From assembly GCA_021399445.1 (NCBI GenBank), contig JAJTUQ010000001.1, positions 992,001 through 1,056,000 on the forward strand: a DNA stretch of 64,000 bases, read 5' to 3'. The stretch is from Xylogone sp. PMI_703. Taxonomy: Eukaryota > Ascomycota > Leotiomycetes. This document shows, one piece after another, positions 13,526 to 33,724 of this stretch. Each line of letters opens with the position of its first letter. Within the stretch, counting starts at the first letter, position 1. Position numbers and translations under genes: made by a program. The notes below the pieces were generated by a model. The model ran no database searches. It saw only the letters and a list, made by a program, of their open reading frames with translations, and was not told the DNA's origin.

Positions 13526-15472
13526 ATGAAACAAGGACTTAGCAATGTCCTTATACTTCTGTTCGGTTGTTTTGTAATCGTCTGCCCGAGACCTGAGCTG
13601 AGGAAGTTAACCAGTTTTGAAATCCCAGTAAAGGCCTGGGGCTAATAAATAAATCTAGATTCTATAGCAGTATATCCAGATCTTCTCGACATCAGCCTAG
13701 ATGAGATTACTGCTGGTCTGCAAAGTGGATACTGGACTTCAACAGACCTTGTTACGGTAATACATTGGCTTTCAGGATATAAAACCAAACCAATGCTAAC
13801 TAAGTGAAGGCCTACACTTTACGGATCCAAGAAGTATCGGCTTTGAATACCGTAACTGAAATCAATCCTGATGCCATCTCAATTGCACAATCTCTCGATG
13901 CTGAACGCTCGAGAGGGCACTTGCGGAGCGCGCTGCATGGGATACCGATAATGATCAAAAATAACATCGCCACAATGGACAAGATGAACAACACAGCGGG
14001 CTCGTACTCATTACTTGGTGCAACAGTGCCTCGAGACTCGACAGTTGTTGCTAAGCTTCGAGCAGCCGGGTTGATAATTCTTGGTAAAGCAAACATGTCT
14101 CAATGGGCCCAATTCCGCAGCAGTAAAATGAATACTACAAGTGGGTGGTCCGCCTACGGTGGTCAAGTTACTGGTGCTTACCATCACAATATGAGCCCCA
14201 GCGGTAGTAGCAGTGGAAGTAGCGTGGCTACTTCCATAGGCCTCACTGCTGTTGCCCTTGGAACGGAAACAGATGGTAGTACGTATTTTCCATCATTATT
14301 TTTCAATTTTTTCTGTGTCCCTGGCAGTATTGCCTATAATTGAATCTCATTCAATGATGAATCTTATTCCGTCAATTCTGACTCCTCAAAGGCATCATAG
14401 TCCCGTGCAGCGTTGGTAACCTAGTTGGTATTAAACCGACAGTTGGACTAACATCTCGATCTCTTGTTATACCATTTAGCGAGCACCAGGACTCAGTTGG
14501 TCCTATTGCCAGAACCGTTAAAGATGCAGCTTCCATACTTTCGATTATAGCCGGCAAAGATTTCCATGATAACTATACTTCTATCCAGCCTTTTGACACG
14601 CCACCGGATTATACTCGATCATTAGATTTCTTTGCCTTTCGCGGTGCAAGGATTGGAATACCCCGTAATGGTATCGAGAGAGCTGAAAATACTCTTCGTT
14701 ACCCTCTTCTTGACACATTTGAAAAAGCTATTCAAACCATTCAGAGTGCTGGAGCTACTATCGTCGATAACGCAAACTTTTCGGCATGGGATGAATATAT
14801 TATGGATAGTAAAGATCCGTATGGAAGTAAGAACATTGTCCTTGGCGCAGATTTTGTCTCTGGCCTTGCCAAGTATCTTTCACAACTCAGCTCCAATCCG
14901 AATAACGTTACATCGTTAGCAGATGAAGTGGTATTCACGCAAAACTCTCCCTTAGAAGACTATCCCAGACGAGATACATTATCATGGAATCGAGCACTGT
15001 CTCTAGGTTTTGATAATACGGATCATCGTTTCTGGCAAGCTTATCAGAAAAGACTGTATCTTGGAGGAGAAGGTGGTGTAAACGGGGCTTTAGAACGGCA
15101 TAACTTAGACGCTCTGATAATGCCTTCAGACCTCAGCCCCGGAATACCTGCGGCAGCTCGCGTTCCAATCATAACAGTTCCACTAGGATCCTATCCAAGT
15201 GACTATCCGATATATAGAAATTCAGAGGGCCACGTCATTGTTGGACCCAACGTACCGTTCGTCCTCCACACCTCATTATTCCAAATTATCATTTTGTTCC
15301 AAGCTGATAAGACCCTGCAAACAGATTCGGTATTAGCTTTATAGGACCTAAGTGGAGTGAGGAGAGACTTATAGGATTCGCATATGCATACGAGCAAAGA
15401 ACATTCGCACGGCAAAAAGTAAAACCCGTTATTCTACCAGAAACTCAAATTATCGATGTCTTAAATGGCTAA
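13526..15472 (+). CDS. Amidase-signature family hydrolase, probably secreted
   Basis: Hydrolyses amide bonds with a Ser-cisSer-Lys triad. Well-supported exons: one ending at 13756, then 13810-14275, 14392-15256 and 15325-15472. The catalytic Lys is in GIPIMIKNNIAT; the Gly/Ser-rich segment SPSGSSSGSSVATS holds the cis-Ser, and the nucleophile segment continues across the intron as GTETDGGIIVPCS. The C-terminal PFGISFIGPKWSEERLIGFA is restored by the last splice. The start at 13526 opens a hydrophobic leader (MKQGLSNVLILLFGCFVIVC) typical of a signal peptide, but the junction from it to the exon near 13665 does not resolve cleanly. It is convergent with the first UstYa-like gene, so it may be the left edge of the RiPP cluster or an unrelated neighbour. 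Confidence 0.75.
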
Positions 15473-15736
15473 CTAGAAAAAACATTGATGAAACTTCATG
15501 TACAAGTAACAGGTAAGAGGTTATTTGAGTTTTAATAATATATCGGTATGTAAATGTAAAATTAAAGCTCATAATGTTCGAAGGTAGCACATATTAGCAA
15601 TATTTATTGTTCCAACTTGCTCTTTTACAAAGTGACCTTTCATACACTTATCCTAGTTTTAGGTAAATTAAAGTTACATCCAACAACTTTAGTATCTCAA
15701 TAAAAGCCTATTCTCAATTCTCTCAGACTAATTATC
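15473..15736. other. Convergent spacer
   Basis: 264 bp, strongly AT-rich, between the amidase and the first UstYa-like gene. Nothing beyond presumed 3' untranslated sequence. Confidence 0.4.
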
Positions 15737-16363
15737 TTAACAAGCTCCGAATCCAATATTCACATCAGTTCCAATTGCAGACATATTTGCTGGTCGATAC
15801 ATGTCCGCACAATGAAGCGTATGCTTGTAATAAGAAAGGCCTCTATCAATCCTGCGACCCTCTTTCAAAGCTCGGTGCATTTTCATCCATGAATATCCAC
15901 AATGCATGCGGTGAAATTCATTGGTAGTGTATGACATGACAGTCTTCTCAGACAGCTCAGTCTCAGAAATCTCCTTCGTGCCGTTTGAATCTTCGTAAAA
16001 ATGCCATACTCTTACTGCCCGAAACTCCTCGTTTAGCTCAGAGTCATGACACTCCATAGGCATCCAAGAAACTGTCATCAGTTCAAAAACACATCCCAGC
16101 GCTTTGGCTTCCTGTGCATTCTTCCCACACCGGAACTTCTTCTCTACGTGGAACGGATATTGTGACCTCCATTTCACTCGTAGGAATATATCCACCCCTA
16201 TTGCCGTTGAAAGAATTAGAGCGGTGATAATACCGCCTATTAAGAGGCGCCTTAAGGAAACTTGTTTCCTCGGTGAAGGCGTGGTTGTGGAGGCGCTTTG
16301 AAGTAGAGATTCTTTCTCAAAACTGTTTTCCGTATCATCATCAAAAGAATGACGCACACTCAT
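15737..16363 (-). CDS. UstYa-like membrane protein, Cys-rich HxxHC subtype (copy 1)
   Basis: Probable peptide-modifying oxidase of the UstYa/DUF3328 group, anchored in the secretory membrane. Intronless, 208 residues from ATG 16363. A polar N-terminus is followed by one membrane helix (LLIGGIITALILSTAIGVDI). The luminal domain has FRCGKNAQEAKALGCVFELM, a Trp-Pro-Cys stretch (SWMPMECHDSELNEEF), and two HxxHC motifs, HRMHC followed by YSWMKMHRAL, and HTLHC near the C-terminus. Paired HxxHC motifs are the proposed metal-binding and catalytic residues of UstYa proteins. Family membership is inferred from topology and motifs; this Cys-rich subtype has no assigned reaction that I know of. Confidence 0.75.
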   Translation of the reverse strand: MSVRHSFDDDTENSFEKESLLQSASTTTPSPRKQVSLRRLLIGGIITALILSTAIGVDIFLRVKWRSQYPFHVEKKFRCGKNAQEAKALGCVFELMTVSWMPMECHDSELNEEFRAVRVWHFYEDSNGTKEISETELSEKTVMSYTTNEFHRMHCGYSWMKMHRALKEGRRIDRGLSYYKHTLHCADMYRPANMSAIGTDVNIGFGAC

Positions 16364-17166
16364 GGCTTTGGCGTAATGTGAGTCTAGATGATACTAAACG
16401 CAAAGAGTGATATCAATTGTATACGTCCTATCTTAGGTGTATAATCTCATGGCCCATGGCTTCAACATGAATTTGCACGCATGTGTAGATGGCATGAAAT
16501 CTAGACTGTAATCACTGTCTGGTCTACACAGAATCATCTGATCCGTAGCAAAACAAGTGAATCTCAACTTAGGCGACGGCTGTGTGTAGGTGGTCTCCGT
16601 GCGACGCCATTTCCGGATAGTTACTACTTGCAGGATCTCTTGCCGCCGGATCTGAGATTTTAGCACAACAGTGGGATGGACGATCAACCGCGGAATGTTA
16701 ATTGTACTATATTTTCGCCGATTCACTGAGCTTTCGGGCGGTAGAAGTTAGTCGCCTGCGATAGGACCGGAGAACTCCATGGAGGATGCATGATATCCCA
16801 CTTATAATGGCATCGAGCTCAACTATCTGCAGATCATTCCAGAAAGGGTATGGACACTTCATACGGCTGTATCCTTACGTACATAGATGACCCAGTGGGG
16901 TAACTATCCATACGAAAGAGAATGTAGATCGTATGTGCTTACGAAATATTGTAGCAACTATCACCGGGTCGACAGCAAGGGGTGTATTGTGCGGATACGT
17001 AGAGATCAGCTGGTGTGACTACATCGATTGTGTCACGCTGTGTTGCGGGAGCTCAAAAATATCGTATCTTGCAGTACGAAAGAGAGTAGTATTATGAAGA
17101 ATAATAAAATAGCTAGGGGACGCATATATGGTAAAGCGACTAGAATTCCTATTCTACTGTTACGTG
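16364..17166. other. Intergenic, between UstYa-like copies 1 and 2
   Basis: About 800 bp. The 97-codon minus-strand frame at 16433-16726 has no recognisable motif. Presumably the promoter of copy 1 and the 3' end of copy 2. Confidence 0.4.
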
Positions 17167-17986
17167 CTAATAATCGACTTCCTTCTTAAAATGAAATACA
17201 TGATTTCTCATCCCTACCTGACTAGAGATGGTACCATTATGATCCTCATTTAAAAGAACCATTGAGCAATGGTGGACATGATCCATAGTCCCCATCCGTG
17301 GTTCAAGATATGCCTTGCTCATGCCTTGCACGATTCTGTGAGTCTTCTCCCAGTAATACAAGCAGTGCTGGAAATGCCAATAAGAATCCGCAAAGAAATA
17401 ATCTCGAGTATCGCCAAATTGAGCAACTTGGTCCGCTGTAAGTGGCTTTGTGCGATTAAAATCCGCCCAATAATGATAGCCCCCATTTGGCCCATTTCCC
17501 ATAGTTGCGTACTTTCGATCTAACTCGTCATCTGTGCAGGCTGGTGGCAGCCATGCTGGTGCCATTTGTGAGTATTTGCAACCCCTTGACAGAGCTTCAG
17601 CTATAGACTTTCCGCAATTGCAGACGTCATCGTTGGGTACCCGAGTCGATCGGACCGGTCTTAGTGCAATATATGCTGAGCTCACGATTCCCTGAACTAT
17701 GAGGCAGACAATCGCAAATTTGAACAAGTAGTTAAGGGGTTTTGAAGCAACAAGTCGTTCTCGAATGGAGTGTTTTCTAGGATATTCTTCTAGTTTTTGA
17801 TGGCTTTCTGCAATAGAATCAGCTCTAGTTTCCGAGACTAAGTATAGAGTATTAGTACCCCGTAATAACTCATCTAACGTGGCCTCGTCATTCTCAGGAG
17901 AACTTAACACACATTTAGCACAGAGCACACTGCCATGAAATTACACCAATAACTTACACTTTCTGATACTTAGTAATGGCAGCCAT
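17167..17986 (-). CDS. UstYa-like membrane protein, Cys-rich HxxHC subtype (copy 2)
   Basis: Probable oxidase acting on the secreted precursor. The long frame has no usable ATG. A 29-nt first exon (17986-17958, MAAITKYQK) with a GTAAGT donor and CAG acceptor joins 17929-17167 in frame, giving 263 residues. It has one membrane helix (FAIVCLIVQGIVSSAYIAL), then CNCGKSIAEALSRGCKYSQM, APAWLPPACTDDELDRKY, the first motif HFQHC followed by LYYWEKTHRI, and the second motif HVHHC. It is divergent from the precursor gene across 589 bp, so both may share a promoter region. Confidence 0.75.
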
Positions 17987-18575
17987 TATCTCTGTATATG
18001 AGTTGACTTCAAGAAAAACATAATACTCTAATGATGAGGCCTCCCAAGGAAATAGTACCCCAGAAGCTCTTGAGTTACTCCCAAGCAACAGAAAATAGAA
18101 TTATCAGATATGTGAAAGAATATTCAATCGGCAATGCAACAAGCTAAACTTTTTTTCGGCTAAGGGGATTAGTAGCCTGTATTCGGATGGTATAGAACAC
18201 ACTGTTAGGCTAATTCTATAGTGATAGAAGCTATTGCATCCTCAGCCTAACTAGAAAGGAAATATCTACCGGAGCCTACTATTTGCCACATCCGTTGGAA
18301 AGACACGGAAAGGAAGTTTCCTTATTATCCGAGATATCAAGCAGGATAATAACAGTACCAGAAAACTTGATTCATGATCTTCTGGAGATGTAGCCTGAGT
18401 TTAGGAGCAAAAAAATCCGGCATACAGATTATAATCACATTCAAACCTTCTTAAAAGATACATATAAAGCATTTTCATCGTTTATTGTAACTAGATACCA
18501 GCCGTCCATCATTTTAGTCTTTAAAACTCTACTACTCTAAAAGTACCCGGGCTTCCTATATCCTCTTGAATCACC
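17987..18575. promoter_or_regulatory. Bidirectional promoter of UstYa-like copy 2 and the RiPP precursor
   Basis: 589 bp between divergent start codons. TATAAA at 18463-18468 lies about 113 bp before the precursor ATG. No palindromic zinc-cluster site could be singled out by eye. Confidence 0.5.
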
Positions 18576-19148
18576 ATGAAGGCGACACTCGTTCTCTCTG
18601 CATGGCTTGTGGTCACCGCCACTGCAGTGCCACTGCTCAACTCCAAGCGCGATTTTGCAGAGCCTCTCCTCGGTGAAGCTGTCAGCAAGGTTAAAAGGGA
18701 CTTTGCAGAACCATTGCTAGGAGAGGAAGTGTCTAAGAGAGACTTTGCCGAACCGTTGCTAGGTGAAGCCGTGTCCAAACGTGATTTTGCAGAGCCTCTA
18801 CTTGGAGAGGATGTATCCAAGAGGGATTTTGCTGAGCCTCTTCTGGGAGAAGAGGTATCCAAGAGGGATTTCGCTGAACCCCTTCTAGGCGAGGATGTTT
18901 CCAAACGTGACTTTGCAGAGCCTCTACTTGGAGAGGATGTATCCAAGAGAGATTTTGCTGAACCACTTTTGGGAGAGGCTGTTTCCAAGCGTGACTTCGC
19001 TGAGCCTTTACTCGGAGAAGACGTATCCAAGAGAGACTTCGCAGAGCCTCTTCTAGGAGAAGATGTTGGTAAGCGCGACTTTGCCGAACCTCTCTTAGGT
19101 GAAGCGACCTCAAAACGAGGATACGTCGCCTCTCCTCTCCGAGTCTAA
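18576..19148 (+). CDS. RiPP precursor with 11 Kex2-bounded repeats (dikaritin-like)
   Basis: Secreted multi-core precursor, 190 residues, intronless. Residues 1-17 form a signal peptide (MKATLVLSAWLVVTATA). From residue 24, eleven units each start with Lys-Arg (Kex2 site) followed by the invariant core DFAEPLLGE and a variable tail (A/E/D, then V or T, then S or G). Units 2-11 are exactly 14 residues; the first has two extra residues (KV). After the last KR comes a different tail, GYVASPLRV, which holds the only Tyr after the signal peptide. The layout matches ustiloxin, phomopsin, asperipin and victorin precursors, and UstYa-type genes surround it. The core has Phe as its only aromatic residue and no Cys. 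The mature product is unknown. Confidence 0.92.
   Translation: MKATLVLSAWLVVTATAVPLLNSKRDFAEPLLGEAVSKVKRDFAEPLLGEEVSKRDFAEPLLGEAVSKRDFAEPLLGEDVSKRDFAEPLLGEEVSKRDFAEPLLGEDVSKRDFAEPLLGEDVSKRDFAEPLLGEAVSKRDFAEPLLGEDVSKRDFAEPLLGEDVGKRDFAEPLLGEATSKRGYVASPLRV
18645..19112 (+). repeat. Coding tandem repeat, eleven units of about 42 bp
   Basis: The units encode the same core but differ at many synonymous positions: the Leu-Leu pair uses eight different codon pairs in eleven copies. Units 4 and 7 are almost identical over more than 35 bp, pointing to a recent internal duplication of three units (126 bp). Confidence 0.9.
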
Positions 19149-20041
19149 GAACCAACCATCTCACGAATACTTCTCGTGATTATGGAAGTGAGTATCTAAA
19201 CTCCTTACCGATTGAAGTTCTATAGCATACTCAGTTTGTAGATAGCTAACCTCAATAGCAGCTCTTGATCTCGAGTGGATAAGATCTCTCGGACTATTGG
19301 ATGAGAATCGCAAACCGAAAGGATATCAAGTCTAGGAGCAGGGAAAGGATAAATGTTTCCAATCTTCGCATTTATAATGATTTTTGCCTCGTAGCTCCTC
19401 TATTAAGTCTCTCAATACAAAATCAGTTATCATCAAAAATGAACACATTGAGCAATTTCCAGATCCGCATCCCACAACTTGAACTGAAAAATAATTTAAT
19501 TGATATATTATTAGTAGACAGTCAAGTCAGCTTTAACTTTTAACAATTTAATCAGTCTCTGTCTAATATGCTAGGGTCCTAACTTTGCAATACTTCGCCA
19601 TCTAATTTGATTCAAGTCAGCCAACTGAATACAGCATATCGCACAGTATTTTCGTAACCTGTCGTTTATGCACTGCTCAAAGAGCTCTCATCGCCTAATT
19701 AGCGCCATACACTTCAATTTCCGTAGCCTAACCCCTCTGCATACAAGCTTACTGCGGGGTATGGCACTGTGGCAGGTATTGTGGACGGCGGTAGAGAAAG
19801 CTACTACCGGGATCAGCTCCCGCCGGAAGCTGTCCTTCCCTAAACTAAGAAAATTAGGAAGGTACTACTCTCCCTGTATCCCGTCTTCCACATTCTTATC
19901 ATATGCTGTAAACCTTCGCAATACAGTGCAGGGTTCCAAATACTTTGGAGAGCCTAGTCAGCTCAGAGACACTGAGATCTAGTATTTGCTTCCATCTTAA
20001 TAATCTTATCAAATTATCTTCCACAATTCTACTGTAACAAA
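19149..20041. other. Intergenic, precursor to classical UstYa gene
   Basis: About 890 bp, AT-rich. Frames at 19301 and 19668 show no domain or signal peptide. Taken as the precursor 3' end and the promoter of the next gene. Confidence 0.4.
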
Positions 20042-21037
20042 ATGGGGAATCACATGTGGATGACCCGGCTTTTCAAACCGTCCCTTGATCCAAAATACTC
20101 ACTTATACAAGAACAAACCTGTCCACGATGTGGCATAAACGAAACCTCTGATAATAAAAACTATTCACGCCATAATTTGAAGTTATTAGTGCTTGGTTTT
20201 ATTGCAGGCACTCTAGTCTCACTTCTGGTTTCTGCGCCAGCTATCTACTGGTACATTTCTCACATTCGACATCGACCCAATGCAGCATACTACCCTGCTG
20301 ACGTTGTGTTTGGAAAGAGTAAGAAAGAGCCCAATAGAAGATTTGCTTTCTGTGTCATACTAAAAAATTCTAGTACCAACAAAAGCAGTGATCTTTGAAC
20401 AAGACCCAGCCTTTGTCGAATCTGACCCGTTAGATGGTCGCTGGGATGGAGGTCCAGCTGTACTAAACGGGAACAAACGAACGCCGTGGGATGAGCTTTA
20501 TCTCAGTCCGTGGGTTGAAATACCAAACCCATCGTCAGCTAGCACAAACGGTGGGGTACCGTTGCAGAAATTCTCAGATGATCCAGCTTGGACTTCCTCA
20601 AGCCAGGGATTTGTCCCTTCAGTCCTTCATCAACTTCATTGTGTGGTATGTAGCTTCTTCGGGCTGGCAGATTGTATGAAGGTGTTAATTGCAAATTAGG
20701 GAATCATAAAACATGCCCTTATGCGTTTTGAAAAGGGAGACTATGACTATAACCCATATGAAGATACAACACACTGTTTGGAATATTTAAGACAAGTATA
20801 CAAAAGTGAGACACATGATCAATGAACAGTAACTGATTGATTCCATAGACCTTAATGTGCCACGGTGACCTTACTTTGGAGAGGCCGCGTTTCGTCACTG
20901 ATAAGACATTTGGAGGGCCAACAGGTTGGGGTGTTACTCATCAGTGCCGAGACTGGTCTGCTATCCACTCATTCATTTCGAAACATACCGTTACCTTTTC
21001 AGGCGGTAAACCCATTCTTTGGGTCCCACAGAAATAA
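20042..21037 (+). CDS. UstYa family oxidase, classical HQLHC type (A)
   Basis: Candidate oxidative cyclase for the precursor. Exons 20042-20318, 20374-20645, 20700-20795 and 20849-21037 join in frame to 277 residues. A cytosolic N-terminus precedes a membrane helix (LLVLGFIAGTLVSLLVSAPAIYW). The luminal part has FEQDPAFVESDPLDGRWDGG, the first motif HQLHC split from GIIKHAL by an intron, and the second motif HCLEYLRQ followed by LMCHGDLTLE. These are the hallmarks of UstYa/UstYb (DUF3328): HxxHC plus HCxxxLRQ. Family members oxidise peptide side chains to form ether or C-C bonds. It is one of two classical copies in the cluster. Confidence 0.88.
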
Positions 21038-21816
21038 GTTTATAGAATTACTGAATAAAAGCTATTTCAGTATAAATATTACAATGTACAGTTCCAATAC
21101 ATATAACGCAATAAGTGGTCACAACTTCAATGTGTAAATGATGTTCAAAACTGCGGTGGATGACTGAAAGACAGCGAGATAATCGACTCTGAAAATTATC
21201 AATATATACTTCAAAATTACTACTAGAATCAATTTTAATCTGAATCTTCTCATTTCGAGAGCTTATTTCAACACCGGGAGATGATTTCCATTTCTGTACT
21301 ATTGTGTAGTCTGCTGTATAGACTGGCTCTGCCAAGCCGAGCAAGTTTTTATTCAGTCTACTCTCGACAATCTAGTTCTACGATGATATTAGATGGGAAT
21401 CTATTGCTTTATCGAATGATCGCTGCCGGCATCCTGCATTAGTTAGCTGATCCATCGGCAAAGCCACTGCTTCCTACGGATATTTACATGATCGGATGCC
21501 GCGGTAAAAGGGCGGAAATTTCAGCTCGCCTACTTTCTCGAACGCATGGTTTGCGGCGGCAGTAATATTTCCGAATGCACAAATGCAGGCATCATACCCA
21601 AAATGAATAGTCACGGGTGGAGGTAGGCTTAATTCAAGATACAGCGTCCTTTCCTCTACCCACAGTACTCTTTTTTCCAATAATTCTCAAGTTGGTAGAA
21701 AGCAAAACAATATCTAAAGTGATACTAGCTTTCTACGAGTTTTTGTCTAATTTGCATACTATAATTGATGAGCTAAATTCTGAAGGCTGTCTTTTGTGTA
21801 TTGTATCTCATTCGAT
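21038..21816. other. Intergenic within the RiPP cluster
   Basis: 779 bp, AT-rich. Short frames at 21474-21680 and 21617-21820 have no recognisable features. Contains the promoter of the next UstYa-like gene. Confidence 0.4.
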
Positions 21817-22618
21817 ATGAAGGAGTAGGTTAACCTGAACCTATTGGAAGATATAATGTCTAATTAATGCCAGGGAAACGGGATCTAGTGCTTCGGAGTC
21901 ATTATTGGAGGGTAGATCATCACACACGAGTGATGAATCTGAAATTTTGAAGGAGCTAGGTTACGACAGGAAGAAGAAATCTTGGTGGGCAAGAAGATCC
22001 GGTTTCTGGAAATTCGTTATTATCTGCATTGGAATTGCGAGCTTCGATCTTTGTCTACGGGCAACAATCTTCTTGGTGCAGAAAGTCTCATCATCCGATG
22101 CCTATGCCGACAGTGCAAGGCTTACCAACGTTGAGAAGTTCAAGACTAGAACTGGGGACTGTTATTGTGGCCACTCAATTGTAGAAGCAAAAGCTCTTGG
22201 TTGCAGTTATGATGCGCTAGCAATTGCTTGGACTCCACCTGAGTGTACAGACCGAGAATTAACAGATGAATTCATGCATGCTGGACCAGGTCCTGATGGA
22301 CGCTGGGCTTATTATGCGGATCGAAACGGGACAATCCCGTTAACCGATTACGAAGTCTCTATGTTTTCGGATACTAACAACTTCTTCTATGCTAGCCATG
22401 AGTGGCATTTAGTCCACTGTAACTTTTCATGGAGAAAGTTATTCCGTTCGCAGATGAACGGTGTTGTAATGGACAAACAAAAACTTAGCTTGGAGCATAT
22501 AAGTCATTGCGGTATGCTGGAGGGGCCCAAGTATCACCATTTGGCACTTGATGCTATCGCCACTAGGCTTCGTAATTCACTTTTACCAGGCTTTGGAAGT
22601 GACCTTGGGCCGGTTTGA
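21817..22618 (+). CDS. UstYa-like membrane protein, Cys-rich HxxHC subtype (copy 3)
   Basis: Probable oxidase. The open frame begins at TTG; an 8-nt first exon (21817-21824, ATG AAG GA) joined to 21874-22618 through a CCAG acceptor gives an in-frame start and 250 residues. It has one membrane helix (FVIICIGIASFDLCLRATIF), then CYCGHSIVEAKALGCSYDAL, AIAWTPPECTDRELTDEF, the first motif HLVHC followed by NFSWRKL, and the second motif HISHC followed by LALDAIATRL. Copy 4 at 24.3 kb is its closest relative here; the two flank the LanC-like gene. Both HxxHC motifs are intact in this copy. Confidence 0.75.
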
Positions 22619-23036
22619 TTAGGTTACCAGATATTAGAAAGGGAAGTTGGCTAGGTGATGCTTGATGTTTTTAGCAGAGCCTTATATCTCACTGAACATA
22701 TCTTAAACTATACAATAACACTAAGCATATCTTGTAATTGATATAAGCTATAAGTGATATGTCACAGCCAGATTGACTATGCTCTGCGAATAAGGGTATT
22801 TGACTTGGCGGATACAGTTGACTATTGTACCATGCATCATAGAAAATCACCCCGCCCTAATAGGACTTGCAGGGGTATGCTTTTCTCTCCGGAACTCTTT
22901 GAAGATAAGAACAGCTTCCATCTTAAAATATAAAACACTGCGTTTTAACTCCCCCGCTCCGTAGATTTTGATGAATACGTATTACTCACTTCAATTGCAA
23001 CTTCGTTCCTTTATTCATTGACTTTTCATTGAACCT
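22619..23036. promoter_or_regulatory. Promoter of the LanC-like gene
   Basis: 418 bp. TATAAAA at 22929-22935 lies about 102 bp before the start codon. No other site is clear. Confidence 0.45.
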
Positions 23037-24176
23037 ATGGCATCTCCTCCGAAATATATACCTAATACCGCGACTGCTGAAACTTTGGAAAGTTTACCAG
23101 ACACACGAGACCAGTTGATCAAATCGCTCACTACCATCATTGTTGGCTCCCCACCAAGAAAACCATGGTCAGATAGCTTCAAACCAAATCCTCAAGGACT
23201 CTGGACTGGCCCTTCGTCGATAGCTTACCTCTTCTTCTGGCTTTCTAAAACACATCCAGACATGCTTATCAAGGGGAAAACCCCAACAGACTGGTGTCTT
23301 GCCTACCTTGATTGCGGCTCCGACATGCATCCGGTTGCAGGCAATGGAATTGGAGTCAAAAACGAATATATGGCTTTTAATGCTGTTAAAGCTATTGCAA
23401 CGAAGGATATAGCAGCTATTGAAAACCTAAAAATTGCTGCTGCGGCAGCTAACATAGAAGCTGCTGCAGTTGATAACGAGTTTTTATCAGGTCGAGCAGG
23501 CACACTTGCACTTCTACGTATTGTCAGACGCTGGATCCCAGAAGTAAAAGAAGAATTGGACAGTGTCATGGAGCCAATAATCAAGCATATTCTAGAACGG
23601 CAACCATGGTCCTTCCATAATGTTGCCTACATTGGTGCTGCGCATGGTAGTATTGGTATTATTACTCAGATAGTTCTCTGTAATCCAAGCTACGCTACTG
23701 TGCTCGAACAAAGTCTAGTAGAACATTTAGACGCTCAAAACGAGAATGGTAATTGGTTTGTACGCGCCGGTTTACCTGACTCTGCAAACCTTGTTCAATT
23801 CTGCCATGGCGCACCTGGCTTCGTGCTGTCTTTGCTAAAAATGAGACCGTACTTCCCAAGCATACATGATAGAATTGATAAAGCGATCGAACTTGCGAGG
23901 AAGTGCATCTGGGAGCGAGGAATACTTAAAAAAGAACCAAACCTCTGTCATGGAGCCACTGGAAATGCATTAGCTCTAGAAAGCCCCCAGCGAGAACACT
24001 TCATGAGCTATGCAACCGTAGAGAAAATTCAAGCAGGGATCGAAGATGGAACATATATAAAAGGGGATGATAGGTACGGCTTACAATGGGGTGAGGCTGG
24101 GAGAGCTTGGGGTTGGATGGTTTTTGATATAAGTGATGTTCAGGAGAAAGGTTGGCCTGGATACACCGACGCTTGA
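23037..24176 (+). CDS. LanC-like zinc protein
   Basis: Member of the lanthionine synthetase C-like family, intronless, 379 residues, close to the length of eukaryotic LANCL proteins. The alpha-toroid family features are visible: LWTGPSSIAYLFFWL near residue 55; SGRAGTLALL near 151; GAAHGSIGII with the catalytic-type His203; FCHGAPGFVLSL with Cys256; and LCHGATGNALAL with Cys304 and His305. The two Cys and the His match the zinc ligands of NisC and LANCL1. In bacteria LanC adds Cys to dehydrated Ser/Thr; mammalian LANCL proteins add glutathione to dehydroamino acids. It sits inside the RiPP cluster between UstYa-like copies 3 and 4. Its reaction is unknown because the precursor core has no Cys. 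Confidence 0.9.
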   Translation: MASPPKYIPNTATAETLESLPDTRDQLIKSLTTIIVGSPPRKPWSDSFKPNPQGLWTGPSSIAYLFFWLSKTHPDMLIKGKTPTDWCLAYLDCGSDMHPVAGNGIGVKNEYMAFNAVKAIATKDIAAIENLKIAAAAANIEAAAVDNEFLSGRAGTLALLRIVRRWIPEVKEELDSVMEPIIKHILERQPWSFHNVAYIGAAHGSIGIITQIVLCNPSYATVLEQSLVEHLDAQNENGNWFVRAGLPDSANLVQFCHGAPGFVLSLLKMRPYFPSIHDRIDKAIELARKCIWERGILKKEPNLCHGATGNALALESPQREHFMSYATVEKIQAGIEDGTYIKGDDRYGLQWGEAGRAWGWMVFDISDVQEKGWPGYTDA

Positions 24177-24301
24177 ATTTACTAGTACTAAAATAACTGA
24201 CAAGATTTATGATATTTACTGGTAGAGTTTCAAATTTATGTGGCACATATTAAATTGAAGATCGAGTATTTATTAAATAAACAGAATTGCTCAGCCAGTT
24301 G

Positions 24302-25068
24302 CTAAACATATCCAAAAGTGTTATAAACACGAGTACTAATTCCGTCCAGAGCCAAGGACCGATATTTGACTCCTAGATCACCGCAGTTCTTTGTATGTGC
24401 TTCATTATTATTCCGTAAATCCATTATCACTCCTGTCTCAAGTGTCCTTAATAGTTTTCGCCAGTTGTAGTTGCAATGAACCAAATACCAGTAATGAGTA
24501 GTGTAGAATGGCTCCCCAGTATCTGAAAGAAGTGAAACCTCCTCTAGAGTCAATGGCTGAGTAGCTTTTCGATCTGCAAAATAAGGCCATTCTGTATTAT
24601 TTGGACCAGCAGTATGAAACTCTTTGGTCAACTCTTCGTCACGACATTGACGCGGAAGCCAGCCTATCGCAAGCTCATCATATACGCAGCCCATGCCTTT
24701 TGCCTCTGCAATTGACTTTCCACAACTACAAGCATCTACTACAGTGGAACGATTACCAGTATCGGGGCCCACTCGGCTGACATCAACCTGTAGCGGCATC
24801 GGAATAACTTGAAATATGAGGTCAAAACAAAGCACAACTAAAAACCCGAAGATATATTTCCATAGTCTTGACGTTCCAGCAGGCCATATTTCATGTATGC
24901 GCTCATATTTTTGGAACTCGAAATCAATATCAAAAATATCTCGATTGCTGGGCTCTGATTTTGCTAGAGATTCTCGTGAGTCCGCATATTCACTCTCCTC
25001 GTGTATGGCGCCAAGCTTGATATTTCGATACCTTGAACATCTTAGTTTTATCAATAATATAATACAGT
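24302..25068 (-). CDS. UstYa-like membrane protein, Cys-rich subtype (copy 4), degenerate motifs
   Basis: Paralogue of copy 3. The open frame covers about 250 residues and has no in-frame ATG, so the 5' end is unresolved and the start given is only the frame limit. One reading is that the ATG is split by an intron, AT then G, using GTAAGT just upstream. It has one membrane helix (IFGFLVVLCFDLIFQVIPM), CSCGKSIAEAKGMGCVYDEL, AIGWLPRQCRDEELTKEF, and the tail LALDGISTRV shared with copy 3. The motif positions read YLVHC (His to Tyr) and HTKNC (His to Asn), so each HxxHC has lost one His. It may be a non-catalytic partner or an altered enzyme. Confidence 0.65.
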
Positions 25069-25716
25069 TCTAAACTTACATGTTTAATAAATTATATTAT
25101 AAGAGATATGTAGAAACACAATTGAGTTGACTACGAAATGGAGCTGAGACTGCATTTGATAATCTTAGGCTAGTCACGCTTAAGATTATGGGAGAAAGCA
25201 CAGGGTGGATGTAGTCAAAGCTTGAGTCCTGCAAATCCCAGTAATCTCTTCGCCAGAGATCTTCAATACGCAAGTCCCGGCAATTGACCCAAGAATACTC
25301 AACCTGGGTACGAGTATGGGTAGTGGATTGTCTGTTCCATTCTTGTTCCGCTTGCGAAAATGGCTATTTTCCTATTTTCCGCGCTTAGCCTACCCCCATC
25401 TTATAACTTCCACATAATTCGGGACAAACGAACAAGCTCTAAAGATGGAAATTAGCCCCCGCATAGTAGAAATGGTATGGATGTAGGGATAAGGAGGGGT
25501 AAGTAGTGAGAATAACCTAGTGTAAACGGAATTCCCCTCTTTTGACTTTAGTGCTAATTTCTGTGCCTAGCATATTCTATGCCACATTAACCATATACAG
25601 CATGTATGGGTTGGCTATACCAGTTGACTTCCAGCTAACCTGCAACACCCTATGAGCCAAGGCAGGTGAACGTATCTCAAGCACACCGGTGCTTCAGAAC
25701 TTCATAGTGTTCAATC
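25069..25716. promoter_or_regulatory. Divergent spacer, UstYa-like copy 4 and MFS transporter
   Basis: About 650 bp between diverging genes; presumed promoters of both, plus the unresolved first exon of copy 4. No clear regulatory element was identified. Confidence 0.4.
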
Positions 25717-27453
25717 ATGATACATCCAGATAAAGCTTCAGAAGAAGTTATTACCTGGCGGTTATTGCCAGAGAAGAAGCAGCTATGCCTTCTTTTTTTT
25801 ACACGATTTGTTGATATCTTCCAGACAGTCTCAATTCAATCATACGTCTTCTATTATCTGAAAAGCTTCAATAAGTCTCTTCCAGGTGCTACAATTTCCT
25901 CGCAGGCTGGATTATTGATTGGGAGTTTCACGGGTGCTCAGTTGTTAACGACACTTCTGTGGGCACGAATATCAGATAGAAAAGGTATTGGCCGGAAGGG
26001 CGTGATACAGGTAGGGCTCTTTGGTACAGCTCTGAGCTGTTTAGGGCTCGGTCTCTCTAGAAATTTCAATCAAGCTTTAGCTTGCAGAATTCTAGGTGGA
26101 TCATTGAATGCAATCCCTAGTATTATGTATGTTAGCAGTACAGTACACAAATTTCCTAAGAGCTTGCTAATATTCATCTTAGCGGGGTTATGACGTCTGA
26201 GATTGTAAGTGAGAAAAGGTACCAAAAATTCCGATTCCAATTTGAGTTTGATGTGTACTCATACATCATCAGGCTGCAGCCACTTGCATTCTTACTACAA
26301 CCAATGAGTTTTGGAGTTGCAGCATTCCTTGGTCCAGGTAAAGTGTCATTAAGAGCAGCTTAACTATAAAATTAACAGATTGATAATTAGCTATCGGAGG
26401 ACTTACAGCTGATCCTATCTCACATTATAATGGCCTCTTCGGACCTGGTTCACTGATTGGCGGAAAGAGTGGCGTTGAATGGATGATTAAATATCCATTT
26501 GCTCTGCCTAATCTTCTGAGCACTAGTCTTATCCTTTTATCTGGGTTATGCAACATGATATTTTTGAAAGAGGTGAGCCTTTAGCATTGACTACAGTTAG
26601 TAGATATCATATTAATGGAGCTTAGACGCTGAAGCTGGAATGGTCACGAACAGATGTCGAGATGAATGGCTTAGATGCGGAAGTATTCAGGCGTGATCTT
26701 CCATTTCCAGACGAGAAATCATCAGCAGATATTGAGACCAAAAAGATCTGGACTGCCAAGTTCATATTCACACTCTTTTCACTTGCTAGCTTTGATTTTC
26801 ATACCTCGTAAGTATTCCTTCTATCACTGGAGATCCTAAATTCATAAATTCAATCTAGCGCCTTTAATACCATTTTACCACTATTTTTATCAACACCACC
26901 CACGAGTCCTACTGCATTTGAGAAGCATAGCCTTCCATTCATATTCAGTGGTGGGTTAGGCATGTCTCCAAGTAGTATTGGAGTAGCTACAGCTCTGATA
27001 GGAGCAGTAGGCTTGATCTTTCAAACAACAATATACCCGAGAATCCATCATCGACTTGGTACTCTTAACTGCTATCAGAAATTTGCTTCGTTCTTTATTG
27101 TCGCCTATGCACTTATGCCATACTTAGCTTTCTGCGGCTCCTATACAGGCCAGTCAGGATTTCAAGCATGGATTTTCATTATTCTATTGCTCCTGGTCCA
27201 CGTGATAGGTCGGACGTTCGTGCTTCCCACGGGAGCCGTGCTCTTGAATGATTGTTCCACGTCGCCTTCAACATTAACTAGAGTACATGGTATTGGCCAA
27301 GTTACATCATCAACATTTCGCACACTTGGTGGCGTGGTGAGCGGTTATTGGTACGGAGTAGGAATACAACATGGTATTGTTGGAGCCGCATGGTGGGCTG
27401 TCAGCTTCGTGGCTTTGTTGGGTTGGTTGTCGTCTAGACGCATATTACATTGA
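25717..27453 (+). CDS. MFS transporter (DHA1-like drug/metabolite exporter)
   Basis: Likely plasma-membrane exporter of the cluster product. Exons 25717-26126, 26183-26218, 26273-26337, 26391-26572, 26626-26807 and 26859-27453 join in frame to 489 residues. The start is MIHPDKASEEV. Visible features are a first helix region FFTRFVDIFQTVSIQSYVF, the MFS loop motif WARISDRKGIGRKGVIQVG between helices 2 and 3, FLGPAIGGLTADP after helix 5, and a long hydrophilic central loop (LEWSRTDVEMNG) before the second six-helix half. A 36-nt and a 65-nt exon lie among short introns. Its position in the RiPP region suggests self-protection or secretion; the substrate is inferred. Confidence 0.87.
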
Positions 27454-27854
27454 TCGGTTGCTTTGAAGAGTATATTCAACCGATCTGTTACAAATATTTG
27501 ATAGAAAAGATTAGTATTTTGTTAAACCAGTCCCTATTTTATAAGAGATACATTGAAGTATGGATCGAGAAGCCGTAAGTATTTGATGATCAGATAGTAT
27601 AAGAAAGCAAGACTATATCTTATTACTAGAGGCTGTCTTTAAATAACCTAGCTCTAATACAGCTTTAACAATTTCAATAATTATAACAGTCACAGTAAGC
27701 TATTCTCATAGATGGTCTTCAAAACAAAAAGTTCCTCGGACAAATTGTTTACCATCAGTATCTTTTCAGTACACTTTCCAACTTATAACTAGCAAATTAC
27801 AGATTATCAAGCAATCAGAGACTCTTAACAACATTGAATTATGCTATATAATAT
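27454..27854. other. Convergent spacer
   Basis: 401 bp, very AT-rich, between the MFS gene and the second classical UstYa gene. Nothing beyond presumed 3' untranslated sequence. Confidence 0.4.
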
Positions 27855-28976
27855 TTAAAATACGGAATCAAATTCATGTACCCCCTTTTTCGGCCGTGGC
27901 ACAAACAGAGAACCATTGAATCTCTCTTGCACGTAATTTCTAATCGGCTCAAACTTTCTACAGGTATGTACTACATCGCTTTTGACATATTCGTGGTGGT
28001 ATCCCTCGAACCATTTGTTCGGCGTGACGGCAGTGCTGCCCCAGCACATAATTGCTTGCCGGATATGGTTAATACAATGTTCTTGAAGTACAAATGGAGT
28101 TAGTCTCTGCTATTCATTTTGATGGGTCAAAATAGCAAATCAAAACTAACCTAGGTGGACAACTCCATGAATTGGAAACTCAGGATAATAGTCTCTATGG
28201 AGTGCTTGCCGAATTTGGTTCTAGAATTCAATCCATCTATTAGAGCCGAATCCGTGGAGCACTACTGACTGTGAAGATAGTCACGTACCAAACAATGCAG
28301 TTGATGGAACATATCAAATCTATTTGAGAAGTTTATTCAGTGACTTGTTTTACATGATAAGTGAAGAATGAGTTGTTGGTAGAAGAACTACTAACCCTCC
28401 GGTAAATCCAGACTTTTCCCGGTCTCGGAAGTCCTCATAATTATCTGGCCACAAACGCTTAGCTTCTTCCTCTGATATGGAAAAGTATCGCCCCCATAAA
28501 AGTTCGTGCCATGCATGATCGATCTCTGGACTTGGCGTTCCGGTGTAAACCTTGTCATCTGGCTCCATAACTAGATATTCTTCACCATCGTCAAGACGGA
28601 AATCGACTGGATATTTGAAGCGTCTTTGTTCAAGCTGGACTAGAGATTGTGGAACTTGTTCAAAAGATCAGTATCTCTATAACGAAAGATGAGGATTCGA
28701 ATACCTACGGAGTCTTTCTTCCTGGAAGCCCGTCTCATATGACCATTTCTGCTCCGTTTTAAAATGTGTATAGCCATTGAGATACGTAATCAGAATGAAT
28801 GTTGACACTAATGCTCCGGACAAGAATAGAATAAAAGCTACAAATATATACAAATATATATTTCGAGGCCTGAGATAAGAACTCGGTATCAGCTCCCTTT
28901 CGATAGGTTCCTTTGGTTGATGTGAAGGATACTCTTCTTCCGGATAGGAAGGAAGTATATCGTAATGTTCAGCCAT
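27855..28976 (-). CDS. UstYa family oxidase, classical HQLHC type (B)
   Basis: Second classical UstYa protein. Exons 28976-28709, 28654-28396, 28319-28289, 28220-28151 and 28081-27855 join in frame to 284 residues; the third exon is only 31 nt and encodes most of the first catalytic motif. Start ATG at 28976 (MAEHYDILPSY). It has a membrane helix (IYLYIFVAFILFLSGALVST), the family block YTGTPSPEIDHAWHELLWG, the first motif FHQLHCL, and the second motif HCINHIRQAIMCWGSTAVTP. All conserved His and Cys residues are present. The pair of classical copies (this and 20.0 kb) resembles the UstYa/UstYb pair that cyclises ustiloxin. This gene marks the right edge of the cluster as I read it. Confidence 0.88.
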
Positions 28977-31072: not shown

Positions 31073-33724
31073 CAGTGATTCTATCCATATCCCATATCCC
31101 ATACGGCCTCATATGGAGTATGGAATGTGGATCAATCTTCATATGGGTTCATATTACATACATATGGAATACAGAAACTGACGTCATACATCATCTCCAA
31201 TCTCTACCTGTAGGTTTTCAATACCCCCTGTAGTAGCTACACCTTGCCCAACTAACTCGGCTGCTACTCCCTCTGCTACTCCGCTGCGTATCCAGCTCTT
31301 CAAGCACTCGCCCTTCTCAACCGTAGACGCTCCAAGCTGCACTCTTTCCCATGTAATTGTACGACGTGCGCCTGAAAAGACTCGCTCAGGGTCAGCAGAC
31401 ATAGCCGGGATTGAAAGAATATCTACTGCCATCTTTGATAGTCGCGGAAATCGTTGTCGTTGCTCATCAAGCAGCCACCAAGTAAGCGGAGAACAATCGA
31501 TTTGAATCGGTGTTTGTGAAATATAGGCTTCGTACTCGTCAATATCTATGGCTGTGCCAATAACATCAAGCTCTTGTGCAAGGAGATCGTATTCATCCGG
31601 CTCTGCCTTTGGCTCTAGCGGCGGCGTAGGATCCATCATTAACAGCCCTTTATAGCTATCATCCCAGAGTCTCTTAACTGCACTAAGCGTTTGCCGATGC
31701 CAGCTCTTTGGCCAGTTCTTCAGAATATATGCTTTTCGACGTGATGGGTGAAGAATCAGCGCTGCAGCGTACGCTGGCGTCTCGTCTGACTTCATATAAT
31801 ACTTGTCAAAGACATGCCAGCTCGTAAGGATACAACTAAGAAGCTGTGGATCGTTCTTAAATTTTTCAAAGGCTTGATTATAATGCTTCACAAGGATATC
31901 CATAGTAAAGAGCGTTTGATCAAGCGTAGCGCAATAGTCCTGGGTCCGTTGAGTAGCCTTCCAAAAGGGCTGCAGAAAGCTACGTGTATTCTTCAGCATT
32001 AGCCAGTCCTGAGGCGTCAGATAATCGTCCTTTAGCTGATCATAGTACTTTTTCTGATACCACTCAACATGCTCTTGTTTCTCAATTACCACATCAAGGA
32101 GAAGATACCACGAATTCCAGCGTGTATCATTATCGAGACACAACACTCTGCCAGCCTTATCCTTAAAGAGATTATACCGATAATTATCGGCTCTTATATG
32201 AATACAGGTGTTATGAACCTTACCAAGAGGTCCCATTTGACGCCAACCTAGAGATTTTCTCTTCTTCCACTCCTCGATTAGCGTTATATCGTATTCAGCC
32301 TCATCACACTCCTCCATTTGACGGCAAGCAGTATCAATAGCTTCCTTCGATTCAGTGAAGAGAAAAGCTTGAATAGCAAGGTTAATAATATGGCCGTGAC
32401 AGCGGATTCGATGGTCTTTAGGCTTCCATTCCTTGCCTTTTCCCCTCAGGAAATCGCTCAGGAGACGGCAGAGCACATCATTAGAGCCGTGATTATCGCC
32501 TGTAACATAGCCAATCTTATGTGAAACATTATAATCCTCAATTACACGTTCCAGGAGCTTAAACTGCTCTGCGCCGCTATGGCTCCCAGGCCCGTCAAGG
32601 CCAGGCAGCTCTGGCAGAGCAAGTAAGGCTTGACAGGTTTTCTTTAACTCCTCATTAACAAATTGCGCACAGACTCCAAGGAAAGCTTTGCGATTTGGCG
32701 AAGTCCAAACGTCGGCGGAAAGATGAATGAGAGACGGCGTAGCTTGAAGTTTCTTTCGCAGGATATCTTTATAGATAGAGTAAGAATTTGATACAAGCTT
32801 TTGAATTGAACCATGCGAGAGGCTAATAAGATGATCTGCAGCAGGATTAATTGTAGCTATAAAGGCATGAAATTCTGGCCATTGGCTGATATTATAGGGG
32901 AGATTTCGAACCGTTACTAGCTGAACAAGAGCCTCGATAGCTGCCTTGCGGTTTAGTGAGTTCTTCAGCACCTCCTGCTCATGCGCTTTAAGCTTCACAG
33001 TGTTCACTTCGCCGGCCTTTGCAAAAGCATCTTTTAGGAGGTTATTGCAAGCCTTCTTCACAGGGTGAGTCTCCCCACTTTCCAACTCAATATTATGTTC
33101 CCTGAGTAGATGGTTACGGAAAGTAGTTGATACAGTAGTACTGTAGGAGCGGCTAATGCAGTATTTGCAGTAGTAGAACTTTTCTTTTCTTCGAGGGCAG
33201 CGCTCAGGCTCCAAACCTTGAGGCTTGCGTGCATGCTCCCACGTGTTCGCAGTGAGTTTCCGTTTACGAGTTTTATTAGTGGTGAAGGAAGAGCTCTGGG
33301 TACTTGCAACTATATCGGAGGAGGCATCGGTTAATGCGATGACAGAGGTTTCACACTCACTAGAAGCGTCTGTAGTAAAGGATGTGATAGAGCCCATTAT
33401 ATGTTATATGTCAAATATGTAAGGCTCGAGCAATTAGCTAAGCGCGAAGCAGTCAGGGTAATTCAGTGTTGCTTTGAAATTTACGGAATGGGAACATCAG
33501 CCTAAGTGCAGCTTTGGGAAAGCGTAGAAAAAGATAAAGAAAGAAAAGAGTGCTCTAGGCAGCGAGAGTCCATGATCGTAGCCTTGAACGGAACCGGAAT
33601 AACTGTTGTTCCCATGTATTCCATACTTATTCCATAAGCCTGGCCTATATGGATATGGATATGGAGTATGGATTAGTTCCATATGCCATATGATATTCCA
33701 TACGCTGTATGGATAGAATCACTG
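31073..33724 (-). mobile_element. hAT-family DNA transposon, apparently complete
   Basis: A 2,652-bp element. Both ends carry the same 17-bp terminal inverted repeat CAGTGATTCTATCCATA, starting with the CAGTG typical of hAT elements. It is flanked by a perfect 8-bp target duplication GTTGTCCG at 31065-31072 and 33725-33732. Subterminal regions hold many CATATGG/CCATATCC repeats. It encodes one intact transposase. It is inserted into the SNF2 pseudogene. Confidence 0.93.
31184..33397 (-). CDS. hAT transposase
   Basis: Cuts and pastes the surrounding element. Intronless, 737 residues, no stops. The N-terminus has a BED-type zinc finger (YYCKYCISRSYS, then FRNHLLREH). Acidic catalytic positions are LSADVWTSP and GYVTGDNHGSND; RCHGHIINLAIQ is the conserved CxxH region; and the C-terminal dimerisation block holds SADPERVFSGARRTITWER with the catalytic-type Glu. 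With matching TIRs and target duplication the element could be active or only recently silent. Confidence 0.93.
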   Translation of the reverse strand: MGSITSFTTDASSECETSVIALTDASSDIVASTQSSSFTTNKTRKRKLTANTWEHARKPQGLEPERCPRRKEKFYYCKYCISRSYSTTVSTTFRNHLLREHNIELESGETHPVKKACNNLLKDAFAKAGEVNTVKLKAHEQEVLKNSLNRKAAIEALVQLVTVRNLPYNISQWPEFHAFIATINPAADHLISLSHGSIQKLVSNSYSIYKDILRKKLQATPSLIHLSADVWTSPNRKAFLGVCAQFVNEELKKTCQALLALPELPGLDGPGSHSGAEQFKLLERVIEDYNVSHKIGYVTGDNHGSNDVLCRLLSDFLRGKGKEWKPKDHRIRCHGHIINLAIQAFLFTESKEAIDTACRQMEECDEAEYDITLIEEWKKRKSLGWRQMGPLGKVHNTCIHIRADNYRYNLFKDKAGRVLCLDNDTRWNSWYLLLDVVIEKQEHVEWYQKKYYDQLKDDYLTPQDWLMLKNTRSFLQPFWKATQRTQDYCATLDQTLFTMDILVKHYNQAFEKFKNDPQLLSCILTSWHVFDKYYMKSDETPAYAAALILHPSRRKAYILKNWPKSWHRQTLSAVKRLWDDSYKGLLMMDPTPPLEPKAEPDEYDLLAQELDVIGTAIDIDEYEAYISQTPIQIDCSPLTWWLLDEQRQRFPRLSKMAVDILSIPAMSADPERVFSGARRTITWERVQLGASTVEKGECLKSWIRSGVAEGVAAELVGQGVATTGGIENLQVEIGDDV

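What the first reader, a model, noticed from the sequence alone, without database searches (positions are those of the whole stretch)
13526..28976. Candidate new dikaritin-type RiPP cluster with an unusual enzyme set
A Kex2-repeat precursor with a signal peptide sits among six UstYa-type proteins, a LanC-like protein, an MFS transporter and an amidase-signature enzyme within 15 kb. Characterised dikaritin clusters (ustiloxin, phomopsin, asperipin, victorin) pair such a precursor with UstYa proteins. I know of none with this core sequence, with a LanC-like member, or with this many HxxHC proteins. Seen: gene order and motifs. Known: the role of UstYa in ustiloxin. Inference: all belong to one pathway.
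Basis: partly seen in the sequence, partly recalled or inferred. Interest (0 to 1): 0.93.

Follow-up and report, generated by a model that had tools for sequence, protein, structure and literature searches.

The report
Fungal peptide cluster with LanC-like enzyme
A fungal gene cluster that appears to cut one protein into about eleven copies of a small peptide and modify them with copper enzymes, unusually together with a LanC-type thiol-adding enzyme, and partly hidden from standard annotation because four of its six oxidase-like proteins belong to a divergent branch.

Summary
In 13.5-29.0 kb of a 50-Mb fungal genome (probably Xylogone sp. PMI_703) lie a precursor with 11 Kex2-spaced copies of DFAEPLLG(E), six UstYa-type membrane proteins, a LanC-like protein, an MFS transporter and an amidase-signature enzyme. 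Two UstYs pass Pfam's UstYa cut-off. Four do not, but profile comparison ties them to UstYa through both copper-binding HxxHC motifs. That divergent family has 41 hits in this genome, 31 within 10 kb of a classical UstYa hit; at two loci it sits beside a Kex2-repeat gene with no classical UstYa detected within 20 kb.

The core is conserved in a second, unnamed source and under strong purifying selection. The precursor has no Cys and the core no Tyr, so ordinary lanthionine rings are unlikely. The LanC keeps its zinc and catalytic residues and apparently shares contigs with orthologues of oxidase A in three other assemblies.

Best reading: a dikaritin-type RiPP pathway, a new variant of a known kind, in which UstYs desaturate or cross-link the octapeptide and the LanC adds a thiol to a dehydro-residue or protects the producer. 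The LanC step and product are inferred. Six UstYs is not exceptional: phomopsin has five.

The parts
13526..15472 (+). Amidase-signature enzyme, 561 aa in a 5-exon model, hydrophobic (signal-like) N-terminus; the TDGSII block (nucleophile Ser by recall) is present in the chosen splice
   Evidence: gene model; PF01425 on one exon, E 2.4e-20
15737..16363 (-). Gene A: divergent UstYa-like protein, 208 aa, HRMHC / HTLHC
   Evidence: (P0003); orthologues P0005-P0008
17167..17986 (-). Gene B: divergent UstYa-like protein, HFQHC / HVHHC; NCBI model P0002 (247 aa) removes one further intron
   Evidence: AlphaFold2 model
18576..19148 (+). Precursor: signal-like N-terminus plus 11 Kex2-spaced repeats, core DFAEPLLG(E), spacer mostly [ADE]VSKR; no Cys
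   Evidence: relative P0135
20042..21037 (+). Gene C: classical UstYa (PF11807, 73 bits), HQLHC / DTTHC (second motif has Asp for the first His)
21817..22618 (+). Gene D: divergent UstYa-like protein, HLVHC / HISHC
23037..24176 (+). Gene E: LanC-like protein, 379 aa, single exon, no signal peptide apparent by eye; His203, Cys256, His257, Cys304, His305 invariant among 38 aligned relatives
24302..25081 (-). Gene F: divergent UstYa-like protein, 243 aa, both motifs degenerate (YLVHC / HTKNC); start codon split by an intron in the model
   Evidence: (P0001)
25717..27453 (+). MFS transporter, several exons (not fully modelled)
27855..28976 (-). Gene H: classical UstYa (PF11807, 135 bits), HQLHC / HLEHC after splicing

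Best explanation
This is a dikaritin-type RiPP cluster. The precursor enters the secretory pathway and Kex2 cuts it after each KR. Copper UstY enzymes of two branches (classical C and H, divergent A, B, D and F) oxidise the released DFAEPLLG unit in the Golgi lumen, by desaturation, hydroxylation or side-chain cross-linking. C and F, which have lost copper ligands, probably act as partner subunits. With no Cys in the precursor and no Ser/Thr in the core octapeptide, the LanC-like protein is unlikely to close ordinary lanthionine rings. It more likely adds an external thiol such as glutathione to an alpha,beta-dehydro residue made by a UstY, either to finish the product or to disarm product that re-enters the cytosol. 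The MFS protein would export the product and the amidase would trim or hydrolyse an amide. Inferred: each enzymatic step, copper use, the product and the role of the LanC.
For: Eleven amino-acid-identical cores against 0.86 differences per synonymous site, with spacer position 10 free to vary. A second source keeps DFAEPLLG with a different spacer (P0135). C and H pass the UstYa Pfam cut-off. The divergent family aligns with classical UstYa by hhalign (E 3.6e-5, score 42.3, probability 71.5) across both HxxHC motifs; 100 column-shuffled controls reach at most 17.6. In the model of B both motifs lie on helices, as in CctR, where HxxHC...HxxHC is a binuclear copper site and His/Cys mutants are dead (PMC12435403, passages). 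Family hits cluster with classical UstYs genome-wide: 27 of 37 outside this cluster within 10 kb, chance fraction 0.023. LanC orthologues share contig lengths with A orthologues in 3 of 7 cases against 0 of 112 other listed LanC relatives (compared by eye; Fisher). UstY homologues PhomYc-e are inferred from gene inactivations to make dehydro-Ile, dehydro-Asp and dehydro-Pro in phomopsin (PMC10880069, passage), and the core holds Asp, Pro and two Leu. LanC enzymes add thiols, glutathione in eukaryotes, to Dha/Dhb (PMC9934072, passages).
Against: No product or expression data. The core has no Tyr, while 65.6% of repeats beside DUF3328 genes contain one (PMC7329392 section 7). The LanC has no apparent signal peptide, so it would be in the wrong compartment for a Golgi substrate. 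Four of seven LanC orthologues show no listed A or B hit on a contig of the same length, two of them on long contigs (Scytalidium lignicola 238 kb, Bisporella sp. 945 kb). The only other precursor found lies on a 1.3-kb contig and cannot be tied to a LanC. Characterised LanCL enzymes act on Dha/Dhb, whereas UstY desaturation of Asp or Leu would give bulkier dehydro-residues, on which LanC activity is unknown to me. D and F had no close relative among the 14 listed hits outside this genome.
Confidence: 0.6

Rival explanations
1. The precursor, A, B and other UstYs form the pathway, and the LanC-like gene is a self-protection or repair enzyme in the cytosol, not a biosynthetic one: it conjugates glutathione to electrophilic dehydro-peptide or damaged protein in the producer. 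(This is one branch of the best explanation, so the two confidences overlap.)
For: No apparent signal peptide (sequence), catalytic residues and LanCL-like fold kept, and human LanCLs remove dehydroamino acids with glutathione (PMC9934072, passages). Conserved linkage fits a resistance gene as well as a biosynthetic one.
Against: No evidence yet that the product is electrophilic or re-enters the cell.
Confidence: 0.4
2. The LanC-like gene is an unrelated neighbour; only precursor plus UstYs matter.
For: LanC-like proteins are widespread (463 hits among 5000 scored candidates, best 120 listed, the named ones fungal), and this genome holds a second one with no UstYa seen nearby. Four of seven orthologues show no A or B hit on a contig of the same length.
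Against: Only two LanC genes were found in 50 Mb, and the clade of this one (99% SH-aLRT, 8 rows) recurs on contigs of the same length as A orthologues in three assemblies, two of them 43.5 and 274 kb long (Fisher p 1.3e-4, which ignores that the seven are close relatives).
Confidence: 0.15
3. The repeat protein yields an unmodified linear peptide (a pheromone-like signal), and the oxidases act on something else.
For: Most Kex2-repeat genes are not beside DUF3328 genes (22% are) and mating factors almost never are (PMC7329392, abstract, section 7).
Against: This precursor lies between UstY genes, 0.6 kb from B and 0.9 kb from C, and at four of ten other loci examined the same oxidase family lies within about 1.3 kb of a Kex2-repeat gene.
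Confidence: 0.12

Closest known systems
Dikaritins: ustiloxin, phomopsin, asperipin-2a (victorin described beside them in PMC9233826, passages)
   Same: Signal peptide, multi-core Kex2-repeat precursor, adjacent UstYa/DUF3328 proteins with two HxxHC motifs. Phomopsin also has several (five) UstYs.
   Different: Core DFAEPLLG has no Tyr. Four of six oxidase-like proteins are a divergent branch below the Pfam cut-off. A LanC-like gene is present, and no tyrosinase or peptidase was found among the cluster ORFs scanned with Pfam.
CctR and other DUF3328 copper oxidases
   Same: HxxHC(x)nHxxHC, N-terminal hydrophobic helix, both motifs on helices in the model of B.
   Different: A, B, D and F carry a conserved Cys-rich block (CG...GC...WxPxxCxD) upstream of the motifs; a counterpart in CctR was not looked for. 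F has lost ligands in both motifs and C in one.
Eukaryotic LanCL1/2 and bacterial LanC
   Same: Same fold (Foldseek TM 0.74 to LanCL2 and LanCL1, 0.72 to plant GCR2); zinc ligands and both catalytic His kept by alignment.
   Different: Encoded in an oxidative RiPP cluster, with no dehydratase found and a Cys-free precursor.

Membership tests
Dikaritin RiPP | Precursor with ER signal and repeated cores bounded by Kex2 sites | tested here: met
   11 repeats, dibasic KR between them, hydrophobic N-terminus by a simple hydropathy rule; no dedicated signal-peptide predictor was run
Dikaritin RiPP | UstYa/DUF3328 protein with two HxxHC motifs beside the precursor | tested here: met
   H: PF11807 135 bits, HQLHC/HLEHC; A, B, D with both motifs
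Dikaritin RiPP | Core with Tyr that is cross-linked (ustiloxin, phomopsin, asperipin type) | tested here: not met
   No Tyr in the repeat; Tyr is common but not universal in such cores (65.6%, PMC7329392 section 7)
Dikaritin RiPP | Macrocyclic, side-chain-linked product | not testable with these tools
   needs mass spectrometry or NMR
UstYa family PF11807 (genes A, B, D, F) | Score above the curated Pfam cut-off | tested here: not met
   no PF11807 match for A, B, D or F; relative P0011 reaches 16.8 of 25 bits
UstYa family PF11807 (genes A, B, D, F) | Homology and both HxxHC motifs in register | tested here: met
   hhalign E 3.6e-5, score 42.3 against a shuffled maximum of 17.6; motifs intact in A, B, D, degenerate in F
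LanC / LanCL | LanC fold, zinc ligands Cys-Cys-His, catalytic His | tested here: met
   PF05147; H203, C256, H257, C304, H305 invariant in 38 aligned of 120 listed; residue roles by alignment and PMC9934072 passages
Lanthipeptide pathway | Precursor with Cys and Ser/Thr to be joined, plus a dehydratase | tested here: not met
   precursor has 0 Cys and the core no Ser/Thr; no dehydratase among the cluster ORFs scanned with Pfam

The most novel reading that the evidence does not exclude
A eukaryotic counterpart of lanthipeptide chemistry built from unrelated parts: copper UstY oxidases, not dehydratases, create the dehydro-residue in the core, and a dedicated LanC clade then catalyses thiol addition to it. 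In addition, the divergent UstYa-like family is a Pfam-invisible class of RiPP oxidase that serves Kex2-repeat precursors alone at some loci, so that some fungal peptides now taken as linear are in fact modified.
Probability: 0.2. Interest if true: 0.85.

Novelty: new variant of a known kind. Interest (0 to 1): 0.62.

Why it matters
Two things become testable. First, whether LanC-type enzymes take part in fungal RiPP pathways, either as tailoring enzymes or as protection against reactive dehydropeptides. Second, whether genome mining by the Pfam UstYa model misses a whole branch of peptide oxidases: in this genome the branch has 41 hits at 24 loci; six of these loci show no PF11807 hit within 20 kb, and two of those six carry a Kex2-repeat precursor close by. 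PMC7329392 (abstract, section 7) reports that only 22% of Kex2-repeat genes have a DUF3328 neighbour; a hidden branch would raise the share of precursors with a candidate oxidase.

Tried and rejected
Rejected: classical lanthipeptide (no Cys, no dehydratase found). Rejected: that A, B, D and F are ordinary Pfam UstYa members. Rejected: an early reading by eye that gene H has a broken second motif; the spliced model gives HLEHC without any base change. Weak Pfam and NCBIfam matches of the precursor (Frankia_peptide and others) lie below the curated cut-offs and look like repeat artefacts; the LanM match of the LanC in NCBIfam (54.8 of 304 bits) is the shared LanC domain.

Led nowhere: Foldseek and VIA-align of the gene B model found no PDB relative, as did a profile search of the PDB (best E 0.12). 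The precursor search scored only the 7994 candidates sharing most words and found one relative, so wider absence is not shown. Six of ten other divergent-family loci examined showed no Kex2-repeat gene. The Kex2-repeat scan found nothing in 47 kb of window flank or in L009; L049-L052 were also clear but are flanks of UstY loci, so they are weak controls. A random-stretch control could not be fetched.

Rows dropped: A2 holds 12 of the 15 family sequences in hand (P0012-P0014 left out); the LanC tree used 114 of the 120 listed relatives (rows under 340 aa dropped) plus the second LanC of this genome; the LanC alignment and model used 38 of 120; one search printed motifs for 13 of 18 loci given, its pattern missing five.

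Recalled, from no call: that Pfam UstYa is a usual mining model, that the Ser of TDGSI is the amidase nucleophile, which LanCL1 Cys residues match C256 and C304, and the SNF2 label of the remnant ORFs.
Full report
What is there. The window is part of a 9.08-Mb contig of a 50.1-Mb, 25-contig fungal genome. Gene B matches NCBI protein F5884DRAFT_825911 of Xylogone sp. PMI_703, which is listed on a contig of the same length, so this is probably that Leotiomycete (for the genus). Between 13526 and 28976 lie an amidase-signature gene, oxidase genes A and B, the precursor, oxidases C and D, a LanC-like gene E, oxidase F, an MFS transporter and oxidase H. To the left, no ORF of 160 aa or more lies between 8.16 and 13.80 kb; to the right are ORFs that look like a degraded SNF2-type helicase (read by eye; the one scanned had no Pfam match) and a hAT transposase.

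The precursor. 190 aa, no Cys, a hydrophobic start, and 11 units of the type DFAEPLLGExVSKR. At the eight core positions all 11 copies encode the same residues while pairwise synonymous differences are 0.86 per site; spacer position 10 is A, D or E. The small non-synonymous value printed for the core (0.026) comes from multi-step Leu codon paths, not from amino acid differences. One relative, P0135, on a 1,332-base contig, has a similar signal region and six copies of DFAEPLLG, each followed by AEKDV. The octapeptide is therefore the conserved unit and the spacer is not. No paralogue was found elsewhere in this genome (two rows, the gene itself and its antisense frame).

The oxidases. C and H are classical UstYa (PF11807, 73 and 135 bits). 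A, B, D and F give no UstYa match even at a loose threshold. They are 26-41% identical to each other and share CG...GC...WxPxxCxD...HxxHC...HxxHC. A profile of 12 family members against five classical UstYs from this genome gives hhalign score 42.3, E 3.6e-5, probability 71.5, covering both HxxHC motifs. One hundred column-shuffled controls reach at most 17.6 and the reversed profile 16.8; the four window proteins alone give 39.0. AlphaFold2 places both motifs of B on helices (mean pLDDT 76.5, about 90 over most of residues 100-200), in line with the copper site of CctR (PMC12435403, passages). A preprint holds that the two Cys form disulfides rather than bind metal in the related halogenase (PMC12871659, passages). 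Motif state: A, B, D and H intact; C has Asp for His in the second; F has Tyr for His in the first and Asn for His in the second. Of the 13 family members that one search printed (of 18 loci given), F is the only one with broken motifs. In CctR, Ala in place of these His and Cys abolished activity, so C and F are more likely partners than independent catalysts (inference).

The family is larger than this cluster. Searches with D and with B each find 41 hits in the genome at E up to 0.1; those merge to 24 loci. Of these 41 hits, 31 lie within 10 kb of a PF11807 hit, where 2.3% is expected by coverage; without this cluster it is 27 of 37. Of the other 23 loci I read longer stretches at ten and found a Kex2-repeat gene at four: C21 5.393 Mb, C20 0.219 Mb, C19 0.863 Mb and C19 2.207 Mb, each within about 1.3 kb of a family hit. 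The C19 0.863 Mb gene has three copies by eye, two by the program, and was found only at the relaxed setting; the C21 reading frame shows no start or signal, which may lie on another exon. Six of the 24 loci have no PF11807 hit within 20 kb; all six were among the ten, and C20 0.219 Mb and C19 0.863 Mb are two of them, so the tally is 2 of 6 without and 2 of 4 with a classical UstYa. The other six stretches gave none; two of those were only about 6 kb. Short flanks (about 1.5 kb) at six further loci, read in L014, L017, L023/L040, L024, L037 and L038, gave none. Unrelated sequence (47 kb of the window, 9.9 kb around the LanC paralogue) gave none, and 0 of 220 shuffled stretches did. PF11807 searches are exon-wise and can miss genes, so 'no classical UstY' means none detected.

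The LanC. Gene E is a full LanC-like protein (PF05147) whose model (pLDDT 93.5) matches plant GCR2, human LanCL2 and LanCL1. Among 38 aligned relatives H203, C256, H257, C304 and H305 are invariant. By alignment these are the zinc ligands, the proton donor (LanCL1 His219) and the enolate-stabilising His277 described in PMC9934072 (passages read). It has no obvious signal peptide. Its seven closest relatives (69-78% identity) form one clade with it (SH-aLRT 99). The only other LanC gene found in the genome lies on another contig; no PF11807 hit lies near it. Co-occurrence: of four A orthologues three are on contigs of lengths 43544, 274481 and 4085240, each of which is also the contig length of a LanC orthologue; the fourth is on 2.7 kb. 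Seen from the other side, 3 of 7 LanC orthologues show the match and 4 do not, two of these on long contigs (238 and 945 kb), against 0 of 112 more distant listed relatives (compared by eye; Fisher p 1.3e-4). That test ignores kinship: the oxidase search listed only 14 proteins, mostly close ones, so distant pairs could not have scored. In Phlyctema vagabunda A and B bear consecutive tags PVAG01_03804 and 03803.

How it may work. Kex2 releases the octapeptide with a short tail. UstY copper enzymes oxidise it. In phomopsin, gene inactivations point to PhomYc, PhomYd and PhomYe as the enzymes making dehydro-Ile, dehydro-Asp and dehydro-Pro (PMC10880069, passage); Asp, Pro and Leu are in this core. 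An alpha,beta-dehydro residue is the kind of electrophile that LanC enzymes meet with a thiol, and eukaryotic LanCLs use glutathione (PMC9934072, passages). With no Cys in the precursor the thiol must come from outside. The obstacle is topology: the LanC appears cytosolic and the oxidases luminal, which makes self-protection as plausible as a biosynthetic step. Every step after the gene content is inference.

Known or new. The layout is that of dikaritins, and Kex2-repeat genes beside DUF3328 genes are common (1758 counted, PMC7329392 section 7). Phomopsin has five such oxidases, so six is not remarkable. New here, as far as searched, are the core, the divergent oxidase branch as a repeated neighbour of Kex2-repeat genes, and the LanC. 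Listings seen: UstYa with LanC (2 of 2 papers), LanC-like with UstY (25 of 289), DUF3328 (31 of 32), HxxHC (15 of 15) and the fungal names with RiPP or UstYa (10 of 36). No title or start of abstract there describes such a cluster; most of these papers were seen as listings only, the main text of Umemura's survey was read in one section, supplements were not open, and subscription papers are not covered.

Noticed in passing
L043 6418-7005 (C20 about 218.9-219.5 kb): Kex2-repeat precursor, eight copies of a KTQSAPFRVE-type unit by the program, near two divergent UstYa-like hits with no PF11807 hit detected within 20 kb.
   Followed up: partly
L044 3295-3555 (C19 about 863.3-863.6 kb): Small three-copy Kex2-repeat precursor (DDGSIRIPVTGVPPPQ type) 0.9 kb from a divergent UstYa-like hit, again without a detected classical UstYa within 20 kb.
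   Followed up: partly
L041 5616-6086 and L053 4850-5341: Two further Kex2-repeat genes (AETEILGDNDSYTLSP, 8 copies; SSGTAVGPVAEEVVETYD, at least 4) at loci with both oxidase branches.
   Followed up: partly
whole genome G000: 108 PF11807 hits at 48 merged loci: this fungus appears rich in UstYa-type clusters; no comparison genome was searched.
   Followed up: no
window 31184-33403: Long open hAT-type transposase ORF (Dimer_Tnp_hAT) bordering the cluster, next to ORFs that look like degraded SNF2-type helicase at 29.6-31.1 kb (read by eye).
   Followed up: no
window 49329-59877: Myo-inositol oxygenase, GFO/IDH/MocA dehydrogenase and a sugar transporter within about 11 kb: looks like an inositol-use cluster.
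   Followed up: no
window 24302-25081: Gene F seems to have its start codon split by an intron (AT|G); the database model P0001 begins the same way.
   Followed up: partly
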